This document shows, piece after piece, positions 45,451 to 64,000 of a stretch of DNA of 64,000 nt. Below the pieces are notes generated by a model. That model was not told the origin of the DNA, made no database searches, and was given only the letters and a program-made list of their open reading frames with translations. Both the position numbers and the translations under genes were made by a program. Origin of the DNA: Moniliophthora roreri (taxonomy: Eukaryota; Basidiomycota; Agaricomycetes; Agaricales; Marasmiaceae); assembly GCA_001466705.2 (NCBI GenBank), contig LATX02000184.1:186001-250000 (forward strand), written 5' to 3'. The number at the start of each line of letters is the position of its first letter. Within the stretch, counting starts at the first letter, position 1.

Positions 45451-48400
45451 CTATGACGGTCTAGTAGGAAGTGGCGGCAGTGGGGGACGTGGTGGCATAG
45501 GGAACTTCTTCGATAAAGATGATATAGAACTTGGATCTTCTTCGGAAGCTGTGAATGTCGGATCAGCCAAGCAGACGAGAGGCTTGAAAATCTACTCACT
45601 GGCATTGATAGCCCGTACTCGTTGGAGAACTAGGCTTTCGCGCTTTCGTGGGGTGTATCTCGATGGCGTGGCAGCGGAGGTTTCCGGGGCTTCCGGGGCT
45701 TCGTACCTGCTGATGGCAGGTCGCCTGGAAGGAACCGAGAGTGAGATTGAGCGGGAAAGGACCCCACCCGTTCCTTGTTCATCTACAGGTGCTAGATGCG
45801 TGGGGCTCGACCGTGTTGGCAACCGGGAAGAAAACGATGATGCGGATGAAATTGATCTTCGCAGTGGTTGGCTGATTGGACTTGCAGACGGTGAATTGTT
45901 ATGAGAAGATTCAACTTCAGGCTGTGGTCGAGGAGGAAGAGGTTGTGATGGTGCAGGCCCAATAGTTGATAATCGGTAGTTTGGTCTTGGTGGAAGACCC
46001 CTCGTCGGCGATACAGAACTCAATGGCCTACTTGATATAGAGCCTGATGTGATTCGCATTTGAGCTGAATCGTTGATACCCATGTCAAGCGTCCTCATGT
46101 CTTCCGTCTCAAAGCTAACCGACTTACGAAACGTCCCGCTGGGTGTATGTACCCTTGTGAATCCTGGAAATACCTCCTGGTGGAGCTGACGATGGGTTTT
46201 AGATGCTTTTTTGATCTTCACCTGGATTACTGGACGTCGAGACTCGAGAACTTCTCTGTGCAACTGAGCATGAGACTTCGTTGATCTTCTGGCCCGTTGT
46301 TGAGCACTTTGAGAAGTGACGGAGGCACGCGGTTGAACATGTGTCAACTTCTCCGACTTTGAAGTGCGACTGAAAGGCTGCATTTGTGGCTGAATGGTCG
46401 GCCACAAACAGAAATAGGGATACACCACAGGATCTACAAGAAGAAATAGAGTCAGATGGCGGGAAAACACGTATTCGCTATCACGTACACAGGTCGAAAG
46501 TGGGGTAACAAGCAGGATAGGTTAGTGACTTGGGGTCCTTGCTGTCCGCGACCTGTCCAGATACCGGAAGATAGAGCTCGAAATACGGATAGATAGCAGG
46601 ATCTAGGGCAAGAAGTAAGGACAATTCATTTCCAAAAAAAAGTTACTTACAAAGGTCAAAGAACGGGTAGTGAATTTTTGCCTCTATGACGATGTATTTG
46701 CAGTCAACCTCGCCTGAAACTGGTGGGTACAACTCGAGATGGGGGTATACAACAGGATCTAGCAAACAGGTGTGAAAAAGTTCATCACTGTCTAAGCGGT
46801 GCCACGTACAAAGATTGAACACCGGATAGCGGACTTGACCAATAGCCTTGCCCTTGCCCTTGTCTGCCAACTCTGATACGCTCGAGGCCAACAGATAGAG
46901 TTCAAAGTGTGGATACACAGCAGGATCTAAAGCAAATGAGAATCAGTTGGAATTCATGAGTAAGGCATCAAATTCTGACAGGGATTGAGCACCGGATATT
47001 GGGCGTTGATATCCAATACAATATGCTTATAGTCTAGTTGACCTGACACTGGTGAGTAGATGTTGAGGTAAGGATAAACAGCCGAATCTAAGTAATTGTG
47101 GTGAGATGGACATTGAGTATTGGAGCACAATGGCTTACAGAGATCAAAAACCGGATACCGGACAGAAACCTCAATCCTGACATCTTTGCTATCTACTTGG
47201 CCAGACACTGGCGGATAGATATCCATGTGTGGGTAAACTGGCTCATCTGTTGATTAAAAACCCAGATCTGAGTGGTCATGAATGTGGGGAAAAGAATGGA
47301 TACATACAAAGTGTGAACACTGGGTAAGGTGTTGAGGACTTCGTGACTCTTTGTGCTTCCTGGAGTGAGCTCTTCAAGGCAGTCTCACTGACAGCTGGAT
47401 AGATGTTGAAATATGGATAGCCACTTGATCGTCCAATTTGCTGCTTTTCCGGAGGCGAGCTCTTCAAGGCGATCTTATTGACGGCCGGGTAAATGTCGAG
47501 GTATGGATAGCCACTTGATTGGTCAATTTGCCAGGTATCCACTGGTAGTGCAGGATACACTTCAAGGAAGGGATATATATTTTGATCTACGGTAATTGAG
47601 ATAAGTTATTTTGGGGTGAAGTGCTTTGTTGAACACTTACATATGCAGATGACTGGATACCTGTTCAGCACACCACCATATGGAGCTTCTTCAATAGCTG
47701 CTTCGACTTCGTGAGATGGAACTATGGTCTCCTTTGTTGACGCAGGGTAAAGCACGAGGTTGGGGTAGCCAGACGACATATTGTTGCTCTTACTGCCAAC
47801 AAACTTCTCCCTTTGAACGATCGGGATCGCGGGATAGATTTCCAAGTGAGGATACACTGCAGGATCTGGCAGAAGGGGTCAATATAGATGGAAAGATATC
47901 AAAGCCTACTCACAGAGATTGAAGCATGGGTATGAACTTTCAGACTTCACACTGATGACTTGCTCACTCAGTGACACAGAGGGATAAATCTCAACCAAGT
48001 TCCATGGGTAGACAGGCGAGTCTGTCTCATTGTAAGTAGAGGTTCACTTTTGCTCAAGAGCACATACACAGTCTAAATGCTGGATATGAGGGCTCCACCT
48101 GAATGATTACTGTTTTCTTTGCATGGTCTTCCTCACTGACAGCAGGATCTAATGAAATGGGATGTGAGTATTTGAGTCTTGTCAGGCAGACATAAGACAT
48201 ACATAGATTGAAGGACGGATAAACAGGTGCTGGGCGATCATTGCGCTGTGAGAGCGAGCATGCTGGGTAGATGTTTTCGAGATTCAGGGGATAGACCGCC
48301 TCATCTGGAAAATGTCAATGGTTTTCTTCGGGTCTCATTTGAGCTGCCAAATACTTACAAAGCTCGAAAGTGGGATACGATGGTTGGAGTCTAATATCAA

Positions 48401-59885: not shown

Positions 59886-62800
59886 ATGACGACAAATCCC
59901 ATCGACCCGATGATACATGTGGCTGTAGCAGGGGACTTTGAGCCACGAACGGCGAAAATTGCAGATCCCGCAGTTGGTGCGTGCCTGTATGATCTCGTCT
60001 GGCTCATAGCTCATAAGGTAATCACCACAGATCTCAAAACCAAGCATGCATTTGCCTGCGAAATTCGAGAGATGCTAGACACAACTCGGGACTCTGAATC
60101 CACCCGCGTATTACATTTTTTGATTCCGACACTCTTGGAACTCCTCCGGAGTGGCGAACCTTCGTTTCGCAAGGATTCCCTGGAATACCAGTTCCGCCGT
60201 GTGCTCATCGAAATTCTACATCGACTTCCTACGTCCGAGGCCGCTCGCCCTCATGTAAACCCCATATTCGACTGTCTATTTCACCTATTGCGTCACGACA
60301 ATGAAGACAATGCTGCCCTGTGCAGTAAAGCACTTATTGACCATGTCCGTAATTACAGGTGCCTCACCGAGGAGAGGCTCACAGAATTCACTGCCATATT
60401 CCAAGAAGCGCTAAGCAAGATGCCTGGTCTCGTCACTGAGTTGCTTTCCGAAGACTCTACCGTCATGGATCCCAATGTATCCCTTCCAGCGCTACGAAGC
60501 TTCAAATCCCTCGCAGAAATGGGATTAGTTATGGTCATGTTCCAGCGTGCTACACGAACGATGGCCCCTGCAGTCAAGAACACGATGACACCCAGTCTTG
60601 AAGTGGTGGAGTTGGAGTCGTCGGCTCAGAAGAAGGAACGGGACGATTGCGAAACTATGGGTGGCATTTGGGCAGGAATGGCATCGACCATCAAGAACGC
60701 TGCTGCCTACACAGATTTTATCAGCGCTCAGATCAAAGTTTGTATAGGCCATTGACTATGTCTCCTCTCTCGCTAAACTTCCACTTACCAGCTCTTATCA
60801 TACCTACTTTACATCACGAAGCATACAAGCGATCAGCCAGAGTACGGCGAGCGTCTGACATTGGCTGCCTTGCGACTTCTACAAGATTGTCCTGCCACCT
60901 CTGTAAACCTTCGGAAGGTATGAAAAACTTGCTGTAAAAACATGTGCGAATTCTCACCATATCTCCTAGGATTTGATGGTTGTGTTTCGCCATCTTATTA
61001 GCACACCGCACCGCCGTATTCTTGCTGGCCAGATCGATAAACTGTTCGACGAAAGAATACTTCTTGGGACAGGTCTCGGGAAAAGGGAGATGTTGAGGTG
61101 CGTTTATTGCTTCCATATACATGGCTTATACATCATCTCCAATAAATATGTAGAACTGGCGTCTATACTGCTGTTGCAGACCTTTTCCATCATCTTCGCG
61201 GTGAGCTCACCTTTGCCCAACTCACCCGTCTCGTTCATATGCACCTCCGCCTCTTGCATAATCGGACAATCGGGACTCAGGTGCACATCCTGTGCGCCAA
61301 AATTCTTTTTGGCACGCCCGACACAATCGTCGTGAAAGAATCCTCGGAGAATGCTGCCCGCCTACTGGAAGTAATCGTGGATAGTTGTCTGGATCGACTA
61401 GATGCATTGATTTTTGTGCATGATGAACTCTTAGCTTCGACAGAGCGAAGAAAAGATAGAGAAGCCTCTGTCCAAGATGTTGTTTCTATCGAACAGGCTC
61501 GTCCAATAGGAGGTGCCTCGTTTGCTGTCGAGAAGACGGAGGAAGTCATAGCAGGTATGTGGCGAGCATCTCCTCAGAATGCCTTGGTCTGTTAATACTT
61601 GTCTTAGAATCTCGTGTACTGTTCAGGCTGTTCCTGCACGGCTTCCGGTTGGCTCTTGGTAACATGAAGAAGTGCAATGCTCCCCTAGCCGATGGCACCC
61701 TTATTTTCAGGATGTTCGAGGGCTGCATCAAGTGCATGTCATATCTTGAAACAGATTCTCGAGTGAACGAGAACAACGACACCGCGGACTGGTTCGCAAT
61801 GATCCTGCTAGAGATCAATCTGCACGTCTTCCAGGAAGTATGGACACACAAGATTGGATTCTTCTTTGAATGTGCGCAGAAGAAGGTGGTCTTGATGAAC
61901 ATCTGCCAAGTACTGTTCGCAAAGGAGTCCACTTCTCCCACATTACTCGCAATAGTCCTGAAGTTCTTGGTTGATCGCTTGCCTGAACTCGGAGAGTACG
62001 ATGATCTGAAGGCAGCGGCCACAATCCGTCTTTTCAAGATGGCATTCGGCGCAGTGGCAGCACATCCTGTCAGTAACGAGCCCATTCTGGCTTCCCACCT
62101 CGCTAGGCTCTTGATGGACTGTTTCCCACTCGCCACAAAAGCTTCCAAGCCAACGCATTATTTTCATCTACTTAGAGCGTTATTCCGAGCCATCGGAGGA
62201 GGCGGAGGAAGGTTCGAGTTACTATATAAAGAGGTTCTCCCACTGCTTCCCGAGATGCTGGACTGCCTCAATAGGCAACTTCAAGCTACTGAGGGACCGA
62301 CGAGGGATATGATTGTCGAGCTATGCTTGACTGTTCCTCTCCGGTTGACCCATTTGCTACCACATCTCTCGTATCTCATGCAGCCGCTTGCACTCGCGTT
62401 GCGAGGAACTCCAGAGTTGATATCGCAAGGTCTGCGAACTCTGGAATTGTGTATCGACAACTTGACACCAGACTTCCTCGACCCCACATTAAGCATTGTC
62501 TTGCGGGAGCTCATGGAAGCTTTGCACAGTCATTTAAAACCCCTTCCAGCCAATCATCAACTCGCTCATACCACCATCCGTATCCTAGGAAAGCTTGGTG
62601 GTCGGAATCGACGGCTGCTTTCCAAGGAGCCAGCACTTGAATATAGCCACCACTCCGATCCACCGAAGGTTACCGTGTCGTTTGGAGGAGTTATGCAAAA
62701 ATTGTCGCTTCGACCAGCGACCACCCTAGCGTGTCGTGTCATGAACTCTTCGACGAACAGTGCTGATGTCGTTTCCGCTTGCGAATATTTGGAGAAGTCT

Positions 62801-64000
62801 CTTAGTCTGCTTGCCAACGAGGTGAGTTACGAGTTACATGTGACCTTCAATTTGATGTCAACCTCACATTGTGTGCAGGGTGTCAAGGGCCGCAACTCTG
62901 AAGATCTCTTTACCGCTGCTGTGGAGGCCGTATATGACGGGCTGCACCTTGCGGACACCAGAGGACGAGCAGAAACTTTCTTGCGCAATCTCTCTCAAGT
63001 GGTTTTCGACTCGGAGCTCCGTCGAGGATCAGCTCGGGAGTCGACTTCTCGGAATTCGCTGTTAAACCCCCTCTTGGACGCGATTCCTTGCACATTGGCT
63101 CGCGAAAATACTGAACAAGCAAGAGAAGCCGAAGCAGTGGTGAACTCGATTATCCAGGACCTCGTAGCATTGGCAAAACAGAACAACCTCACTACTTCTG
63201 AAATCTTCCCCATCCTACACCAAATCGCAAACCGCTTTTCCGCCCTCTGTTTTGACCATTCTTGGTCTAAGAAAGCAGCAGGTTGCACTGGTATCAGAAT
63301 CATGACGACGACGCCGGAAGTTGGCGACAAATGGGTGCGCGATCGGGGTGGGGATCTGGTTCGTACCCTGCTCCACGTGTTGAAGGATCTACCCTCCGAT
63401 TTCCCCGACGTTGAGAGCATCGCGGACCTGCTCACCACAGTTCTAAAAATCACGAGTCCTGATTTTGATTTGCGTTCTGGAGAGCAACCACAGGCCAAAG
63501 CCAAGTTACTCAACCTGGCAGGGATTTTCTTCCCTGAGTTGTCTAGCATCAACCCAGTCGTTCGACAAGCGGTTCAGCGATGTATTGGACTCTTGATCGA
63601 ATTTGGTGGCCTTTCGGCGATGGACTTGCTTGCACCTCATCGGGAACGGATAGTGGTAGGGATTTATGCAAAACCACTGCGAGCTTTACCCTTTCCAATT
63701 CAAATAGGTATCATTGAGGCTGTTCGCTTCATGATCGGTCTGGAGCCTCCGCTGTTGGAGCTAAATGACGAACTCCTTCGTCTTCTGCATGAAACGTTAG
63801 CGTTGGCCGATGCTGACGACGCCTCCCTACTTGGCCGGAACAGCATTCGCCAAGGGACAATTGAGATGACAAAACTTCGAGTCGCCGCGATCAAGCTTCT
63901 GACTGCGTCTATGCCTCTCACCGACTTCTTTTCAAGGCAGCATCAGACCAGACAACGGTATGTATTGGATTTGTGATGAAAAGAATAGGCGCTCATTGAA
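59886..64000 (+). CDS. tra1: Tra1/TRRAP, N-terminal part (runs off right edge)
   Basis: Giant PIKK-like scaffold without kinase activity that recruits SAGA and NuA4 acetyltransferases to activators. Only the first third is in the window, all HEAT-type helices. Start ATG 59,886: MTTNPIDPMIHVAVAGDFEP. A first intron joins ADPAV to DLKTKHAFACEIREMLDTTR. Conserved stretches include ERGL-like LTLAALRLLQDCPATSVNLR, DLMVVFRHLISTPHRRILAG and IDKLFDERILLGTGL. The TRRAP signature GTPELISQGLRTLELCIDNL and TPDFLDPTLSIVLRELMEAL follows. Next come HTTIRILGKLGGRNRRLL and, after the intron at 62,821-62,879, GVKGRNSEDLFTAAVEAVYD. The last visible exon ends at a GTATGT donor near 63,959. The remaining HEAT, FAT and pseudokinase regions lie outside. 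Confidence 0.96.

What the first reader, a model, noticed from the sequence alone, without database searches (positions are those of the whole stretch)
46489..48595. Twelve tandem symmetric exons each encode a Tyr-Pro unit and splice to rebuild YP at the joints
Seen: twelve consecutive minus-strand exons, all phase 1 to phase 1 and all multiples of three, separated by 46-61 nt introns. Eleven of the twelve begin inside the Tyr codon (T|AT). Units read like YPHLEIYPA...YPVFDL, with a 108-nt exon recurring four times. The full coding sum is 4740 nt (1580 codons), so no frame breaks. Known: symmetric phase-1 exons duplicate without frame damage. Inferred: this protein grew by unequal exchange between exons. 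In such an array, exon skipping or population copy-number change would make proteins of many lengths while keeping frame. The regular aromatic-Pro spacing suggests a multivalent binding or assembling scaffold. I know of no named family with this layout.
Basis: partly seen in the sequence, partly recalled or inferred. Interest (0 to 1): 0.92.

Follow-up and report, generated by a model that had tools for sequence, protein, structure and literature searches.

The report
Mushroom protein of repeated Tyr-Pro exons
A large, unnamed protein found widely in mushroom-forming fungi carries about two dozen copies of a short Tyr-Pro motif, spread over a row of small exons that keep the reading frame, and probably works as a flexible multi-site docking string rather than as an enzyme.

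Summary
A 16-exon gene (minus strand, 50968-45451) has twelve in-frame phase-1 exons at 48595-46489. Its 1579-residue product equals a deposited Moniliophthora roreri protein named "salivary gland secretion 1". Of 13 array introns, 12 split a Tyr codon, and 11 of these lie directly behind a YPX3[L/I] motif; none of the 24 such motifs in the array is split. All named relatives listed are Agaricomycetes; no Pfam or NCBIfam model matches. Introns read through at the same joint appear in 10 of 183 predicted proteins, so the layout is shared and old. All 12 array segments match Paramarasmius palmivorus in order: slow unit exchange, not rapid growth. AlphaFold2 suggests an N-terminal ubiquitin-like domain and a disordered array. 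The motif (L/I at +5 in 84%, V in 2%) resembles YPX(n)L/I ligands of ALIX/PalA/Bro1 V domains; the genome has two V-domain loci. Best reading: a disordered multivalent motif scaffold (likely), read by a V-domain protein (plausible, untested). Exon skipping and copy-number polymorphism were not testable.

The parts
45451..50968 (-). whole gene, 16 exons, 1579 aa
   Evidence: identical to deposited P0001
50543..50968 (-). exon 1 (start ATG at 50968): conserved N-terminal tail and first part of the folded domain
50220..50686 (-). N-terminal domain, residues 95-231, predicted ubiquitin-like (beta-grasp), interrupted by intron 1 (50542-50487)
48644..50486 (-). exon 2: rest of the domain, linker, three TSWG blocks, eight PWxxxWPY repeats, first YP motif of the array
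48708..49139 (-). eight PWxxxWPY repeats (residues 592-735), no introns
46489..48595 (-). array of twelve symmetric phase-1 exons E3-E14 (the finding)
48518..48595 (-). exon 3, 78 nt
48359..48469 (-). exon 4, 111 nt (begins in a Gly codon)
48203..48304 (-). exon 5, 102 nt
48068..48148 (-). exon 6, 81 nt
47914..48021 (-). exon 7, 108 nt (T|AC)
47641..47865 (-). exon 8, 225 nt, one extra inner piece
47308..47586 (-). exon 9, 279 nt, two extra inner pieces
47367..47531 (-). 90-nt in-frame tandem repeat inside exon 9 (1.8 copies, 81% matches); the segment is 31 aa shorter in P. palmivorus
47139..47246 (-). exon 10, 108 nt
46980..47087 (-). exon 11, 108 nt
46810..46926 (-). exon 12, 117 nt
46651..46758 (-). 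exon 13, 108 nt
46489..46602 (-). exon 14, 114 nt
45600..46433 (-). exon 15: last array motif, two K[ST]HxxLHxEV motifs, Pro/Ser-rich tail
45451..45548 (-). exon 16: FPMPPxPP tail and stop

Best explanation
The gene encodes a mostly disordered scaffold found widely in Agaricomycetes. A small N-terminal domain, probably a ubiquitin-like beta-grasp, is followed by several arrays of short linear motifs, of which the exon-encoded YP array is the largest. Units carry complete YPx[F/L][D/N/E][L/I] motifs, and the introns cut directly behind a motif, in the next Tyr codon, so adding or losing a unit changes valency but neither frame nor motif. The array works by avidity: many weak copies of one docking motif on one flexible chain gather many copies of a partner. 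The most likely partner is the V domain of a Bro1-family protein (Rim20/PalA or Bro1), which would tie the protein to ESCRT-III or ambient-pH signalling. Shown: gene structure, motif, conservation, shared intron site. Predicted: disorder and fold.
For: Motif core: of 1439 YPxxxxY segments in 71 family members (this one included), +3 is F/L/V/I in 97%, +4 D/N/E in 70%, +5 L in 43%, I in 41%, P in 13%, V in 2%; a pocket for Leu/Ile explains this better than general hydrophobicity. In a model of the whole relative P0060 the array lies at block pLDDT 32-44, while most blocks of the N-terminal domain are at 83-92, its loops at 56-65. No YPX3[LI] motif is split by an intron (0 of 25 in the protein, 24 of them in the array), and 12 of 24 YPxxxxY joints carry the intron in the second Tyr codon. 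ALIX binds YPX3L motifs through its V domain (PMC4907476, passages); YPXL/I is recognised by Aspergillus PalA (seen only as a title in a reference list); yeast Rim101 has a YPXL/I motif and interacts with Rim20 (PMC5037681, passages). The genome has V-domain matches over the Pfam cut-off (PF13949) at two places, C89 and C110, both beside BRO1-domain matches over the cut-off.
Against: No binding, localisation or expression data. The F/L at +3, the acidic or Asn +4 and the Tyr at +6 are no part of the YPX(n)L definition in the passages I saw, so another receptor may be the true reader. Nothing I read shows that a fungal V domain accepts the X3 spacing. Two motifs ahead of introns depart from the core (YPVLNP, YPVICI), and 13% of segments have P at +5. 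The units share descent, so copy number is not independent support. The repeat region aligns badly, so low model confidence there is weak evidence of disorder; the P0060 model also shows a four-residue helix at 700-703, inside its array.
Confidence: 0.45

Rival explanations
1. Sticker scaffold: Tyr and Trp residues self-associate and the array drives condensation, for example of a septal-pore plug or cortical body, with no dedicated receptor.
For: 46 YP in 546 aa plus eight PWxxxWPY repeats in one chain; predicted disorder; YP number varies widely (25-67, median 42, in 71 family members with both ends).
Against: A sticker needs aromatics, not a fixed spacing or the choice of L/I over V at +5 (84% against 2%).
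Confidence: 0.25
2. Sorting-signal array: YPx[F/L/I/V] also fits the Tyr-based YXX-hydrophobic signal read by clathrin-adaptor mu subunits (motif recalled, not looked up), so the protein would be an endocytic or trafficking scaffold.
For: +3 is F/L/V/I in 97% of 1439 segments.
Against: It does not explain the Leu/Ile at +5, the Pro at +1, or the Tyr at +6.
Confidence: 0.12
3. Penta-EF-hand ligand: YPX4YP resembles the type 1 ALG-2 binding motif, so a fungal ALG-2-like protein reads it.
For: YPX4YP occurs 1132 times in 71 family members, 14 times in this protein; the type 1 motif is PPYP and YP separated by 4 residues, with weaker PYP and PXYP forms (PMC5037681, passages).
Against: In the same 71, PPYPX4YP occurs 0 times and PYPX4YP 8 times; the weaker PXYPX4YP 165 times, 2 of them here. 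The review reports no such motifs in yeast ALIX and Sec31 homologues. Whether this genome has an ALG-2 homologue was not searched.
Confidence: 0.08
4. Folded repeat: units of about 36 residues pack into a solenoid or beta structure that the prediction missed.
For: Some linkers hold strand-like stretches such as KYIVIEAKI in E13 (direct reading).
Against: Apart from one four-residue helix, no secondary structure is predicted over the array of P0060; the longer YP-to-YP spacings vary freely (15 to 33 all occur).
Confidence: 0.08

Closest known systems
YPX(n)L/I ligands of ALIX / PalA / Rim20 / Bro1 V domains (PacC, Rim101, retroviral late domains, PAR1, P2Y1)
   Same: YP followed by L/I after one or three residues; V-domain loci present in the genome.
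   Different: The ligands I know hold one or a few motifs (recalled); here 24 in one array, with extra preferred positions at +3, +4 and +6. Binding untested.
ALG-2 type 1 motif proteins
   Same: Two YP cores separated by four residues.
   Different: The full PPYP core is absent (0 in 71 family members).
Disordered fungal septal-pore (SPA-type) scaffolds (recalled)
   Same: Large, disordered, lineage-specific fungal proteins.
   Different: No localisation evidence; those known to me are ascomycete proteins without a described YP exon array.
Exon-per-repeat structural proteins such as the titin PEVK region (recalled)
   Same: Short symmetric exons, each coding about one repeat unit, so copy number can change in frame.
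   Different: Unrelated sequence; here with fungal introns of about 50 nt and the splice site fixed behind a motif.
Ubiquitin-like / PB1 / RA beta-grasp domains
   Different: No Pfam match in any of 29 members; best Foldseek E only 0.014; long loop and extra C-terminal helix.

Membership tests
YPX(n)L/I ligand of Bro1-family V domains | YP-X(1 or 3)-L/I motif | tested here: met
   24 YPX3[LI] and 11 YPX[LI] in the array; 1328 YPX3[LI] and 613 YPX[LI] among 3043 YP in 71 family members
YPX(n)L/I ligand of Bro1-family V domains | motif in accessible, flexible sequence | tested here: inconclusive
   array predicted disordered in P0060, but from a poor repeat alignment
YPX(n)L/I ligand of Bro1-family V domains | a V-domain protein in the same organism | tested here: met
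   PF13949 over cut-off at C89 and C110, BRO1 matches at both
YPX(n)L/I ligand of Bro1-family V domains | direct binding that needs the Tyr and Leu/Ile | not testable with these tools
   needs a binding assay
ALG-2 type 1 ligand | PPYP-X4-YP | tested here: not met
   0 in 71 family members; weaker PXYP form 2 times in this protein; definition from PMC5037681 passages
YXX-hydrophobic sorting signal | Tyr and a bulky hydrophobic at +3 (definition recalled) | tested here: met
   97% F/L/V/I at +3 of 1439 YPxxxxY segments; binding not testable here
PB1 / ubiquitin-like domain families | match to a family profile | tested here: not met
   0 Pfam families at E <= 1 for 29 members
PB1 / ubiquitin-like domain families | beta-grasp fold | tested here: inconclusive
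Salivary gland secretion 1 (the deposited name) | secreted: N-terminal signal peptide | tested here: inconclusive
   first 30 residues read by eye show no hydrophobic stretch; no predictor was run and no comparison with the insect protein made
Any Pfam or NCBIfam family | profile match to the whole protein | tested here: not met
   0 families (Pfam E <= 1; NCBIfam E <= 0.1)

The most novel reading that the evidence does not exclude
Mushroom-forming fungi own a dedicated polyvalent V-domain recruiter: a disordered chain with some two dozen late-domain-like YPX3[L/I] motifs that gathers Rim20/Bro1 and thereby nucleates ESCRT-III, perhaps at the dolipore septum or clamp, with valency set in evolution by adding or losing single symmetric exons whose splice sites lie right behind the motif.
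Probability: 0.2. Interest if true: 0.82.

Novelty: new variant of a known kind. Interest (0 to 1): 0.56.

Why it matters
A widespread, unnamed Agaricomycete protein of about 1500 residues with a strict docking-type motif is a candidate for a core piece of mushroom cell biology that ascomycete models would miss. The exon layout ties motif number to exon number, so valency can be followed through evolution and, with long reads, through splicing. If the V-domain reading is right, it would be the most multivalent ligand of that kind known to me.

Tried and rejected
Families: Pfam, NCBIfam and PDB sequence searches gave no family for the protein or its N-terminal domain. For the paralogue frame Pfam gave none and the PDB search one weak row (5z3g_X, E 0.035, outside the domain). 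The DUF5759 label on P0011 is below the Pfam cut-off, as are two other weak rows there. Viral contigs: 10 stretches matched a pattern for a 94-aa query, none encodes a relative. A search with the N-terminal region gave 11 short proteins, the one named from Pleurotus; it added no function.

Literature: no paper in the library holds 'salivary gland secretion 1' together with 'fung'; none holds YPAVYP, LYPAVYPH or HVWPYQ. The listings show no title evidently on this protein. The motif searches were seen as listings; passages or references were read in PMC2171039, PMC4907476, PMC5037681 and PMC2824755, and the abstract of PMC2397435.

ALG-2 motif considered and mostly rejected. Recent exon-plus-intron duplication rejected: mean intron-intron identity 0.51 against 0.49 for shuffled, highest 0.64 against 0.63; E6, E8 and E9 were left out of the exon comparison.

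Controls on the retained-intron reading: a loose pattern gave 31 hits among 649 Cys in 120 proteins; 6 sit at the joint, one is a second start of the P0031 site, and the other 24 are off the joint, mostly ordinary repeat sequence, but three of them (P0062, P0072, P0110) have no YP inside and restart with D-A-x-YP, so a D-A restart alone is weak. Of the 12 joint Cys found in 120 proteins, 6 read through and restart, P0045 and P0085 end close by, P0049, P0064 and P0067 do not restart clearly, and P0113 lies before the array. P0181 and P0182 restart with D-A and are the weaker two of the ten.

Segment comparison: my splitting rule merges some exons (E3+E4, E5+E6), and the scores are raw local scores, not length-normalised. 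Limits: only 120 of 253 hits are listed (7977 candidates scored) and all 52, so absence outside Agaricomycetes is not shown. I had no way to fetch relatives' genomic DNA, so their introns were inferred through read-through proteins only. Fold matches are not significant, so no subtype is claimed.

Full report
What is there. On the minus strand, 50968-45451, a gene of 16 exons reads without a break for 4740 nt. The 13 introns around exons E3-E14 start with GT, end with AG and are 46-61 nt long. E3-E14 (48595-46489) are the twelve exons of the finding, all phase 1 to phase 1. The product is identical to a deposited 1579-aa protein of Moniliophthora roreri MCA 2997 (P0001), whose longest contig has the length of the window's contig (713406 bases), so the window comes from that cacao fungus. 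The deposited name, salivary gland secretion 1, looks like a mistaken transfer (inference). In the own genome the repeat query hit only this locus (5 places of 5 candidates), and the N-terminal domain has one diverged relative elsewhere (C1, 42% over 50 and 45% over 31 residues), in a 637-aa open frame without the YP array.

The motif. Over the 120 listed proteins the commonest distance between successive YPs is 6 (1777 times), then 4 (832). In the 71 of 120 that pass my tests for both ends, this one included, 1439 segments YPxxxxY have F/L/V/I at +3 in 97%, D/N/E at +4 in 70%, and L or I at +5 in 84%, P in 13%, V in 2%. This reads as a short linear motif with a Leu/Ile-selective position, repeated along a flexible chain. 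The M. roreri protein has 25 YPX3[LI] motifs, 24 of them in the array; none is split by an intron, and 12 of 24 YPxxxxY joints have the intron in the second Tyr codon. Of the 12 Tyr-splitting introns, 11 lie directly behind YPX3[L/I] and one behind YPVLNP (read). So exons carry complete motifs.

Age and movement of the units. Each of the 12 array segments of M. roreri has its best score with the colinear segment of Paramarasmius palmivorus (P0002), ahead of every other segment of either protein (segments are cut by motif, so some hold two exons). P. palmivorus has one more 35-aa unit; the E9 segment is 31 aa longer in M. roreri, where a 90-nt tandem repeat is seen in the DNA. Exon DNA identity is 0.64 at most (9 of 12 exons compared) and introns are on average no more alike than shuffled ones. 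In 20 of 71 family members an exact repeat of 20 aa or more shows recent gain. Units thus come and go in frame, slowly here and faster in some lineages such as several Mycena.

The intron site is shared. If the intron at T|GT...AG|AT is not removed, the protein reads L-C...D instead of L-Y. Six of the 120 listed proteins show that with a D-P restart and 15 or 17 residues between, which means introns of 48 or 54 nt (P0031, P0032, P0038, P0060, P0100, P0111). Of 63 further proteins P0153, P0166 and P0181 show it by pattern and P0182 by eye (48, 51, 48 and 48 nt). That is 10 of 183, the two with a D-A restart (P0181, P0182) being weaker; the controls are told under Tried and rejected. The named ones belong to Agaricales, Russulales and Polyporales (orders recalled). 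Others end just behind the same Cys (for example P0045, P0085, P0123). Conversely, of the 13 listed proteins whose longest contig is under 8 kb, 8 are single open frames with the IARE motif before and the HxxLH motif behind the array, for example P0035 (1587 aa, 93% of 5115 bases) and P0072 (91% of 4818). The simplest reading is spliced transcripts, inferred from size alone; of the other five, P0052, P0064 and P0110 lack the first motif in that spelling, and P0057 and P0085 stop inside the array.

Range. The named hits listed are Agaricomycetes as far as I can place them, including Ceratobasidium and Tulasnella (placement recalled). Only 120 of 253 hits are listed, so this is the range seen, not a proven limit.

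How it may work. The motif fits YPX(n)L/I ligands of the V domain of ALIX, PalA/Rim20 and Bro1. What I saw in print: ALIX binds YPX3L motifs through its V domain (PMC4907476, passages); yeast Rim101, with a YPXL/I motif, interacts with Rim20 (PMC5037681, passages); the PalA paper only as a reference. The genome has two places with both V-domain and BRO1 matches. That makes a polyvalent V-domain scaffold the leading mechanism for me, at about one in three; that the array is a disordered multivalent string is likelier, about three in four. Adaptor mu subunits, an ALG-2-like protein and receptor-free self-association are rivals. The strict ALG-2 motif is absent (0 PPYPX4YP in 71).

Verdict. It belongs to a widespread Agaricomycete family for which I found no name or description in the searches above. 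The exon layout is old and not a sign of fast growth in this species. Its biochemical role is open but now has a specific test.

Noticed in passing
window 48643-46434, introns of the array: 9 of 13 array introns are multiples of three and 4 of 13 have no in-frame stop, so some could be retained without breaking the frame.
   Followed up: partly
window 50968-50879 (residues 1-30): The N-terminal tail with LSPPET (LTPPDT or LSPPDT in many relatives) is conserved and resembles a phospho-degron or proline-directed kinase site (recalled resemblance).
   Followed up: no
L004:130-2043 (-), genome C1 about 2578-2579 kb: A 637-aa open frame carries a relative of the N-terminal domain with an acidic tail and no YP array; no Pfam family.
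   Followed up: partly
window 49139-48708: Eight PWxxxWPY repeats, a second motif array in the same protein, without introns and of variable number in 71 family members (0-8, median 2).
   Followed up: partly
window 61559-63976 (+): Open frame matching the Tra1 HEAT repeat regions.
   Followed up: no
window 52069-52986 (+) and 54042-54908 (-): PCI-domain match and protein-kinase domain match within 4 kb upstream of the gene.
   Followed up: no
genome C97 about 102-103 kb (L022): A third BRO1-domain locus, below the Pfam cut-off and without a V-domain match, possibly the PalC/Rim23 type (identity recalled).
   Followed up: no
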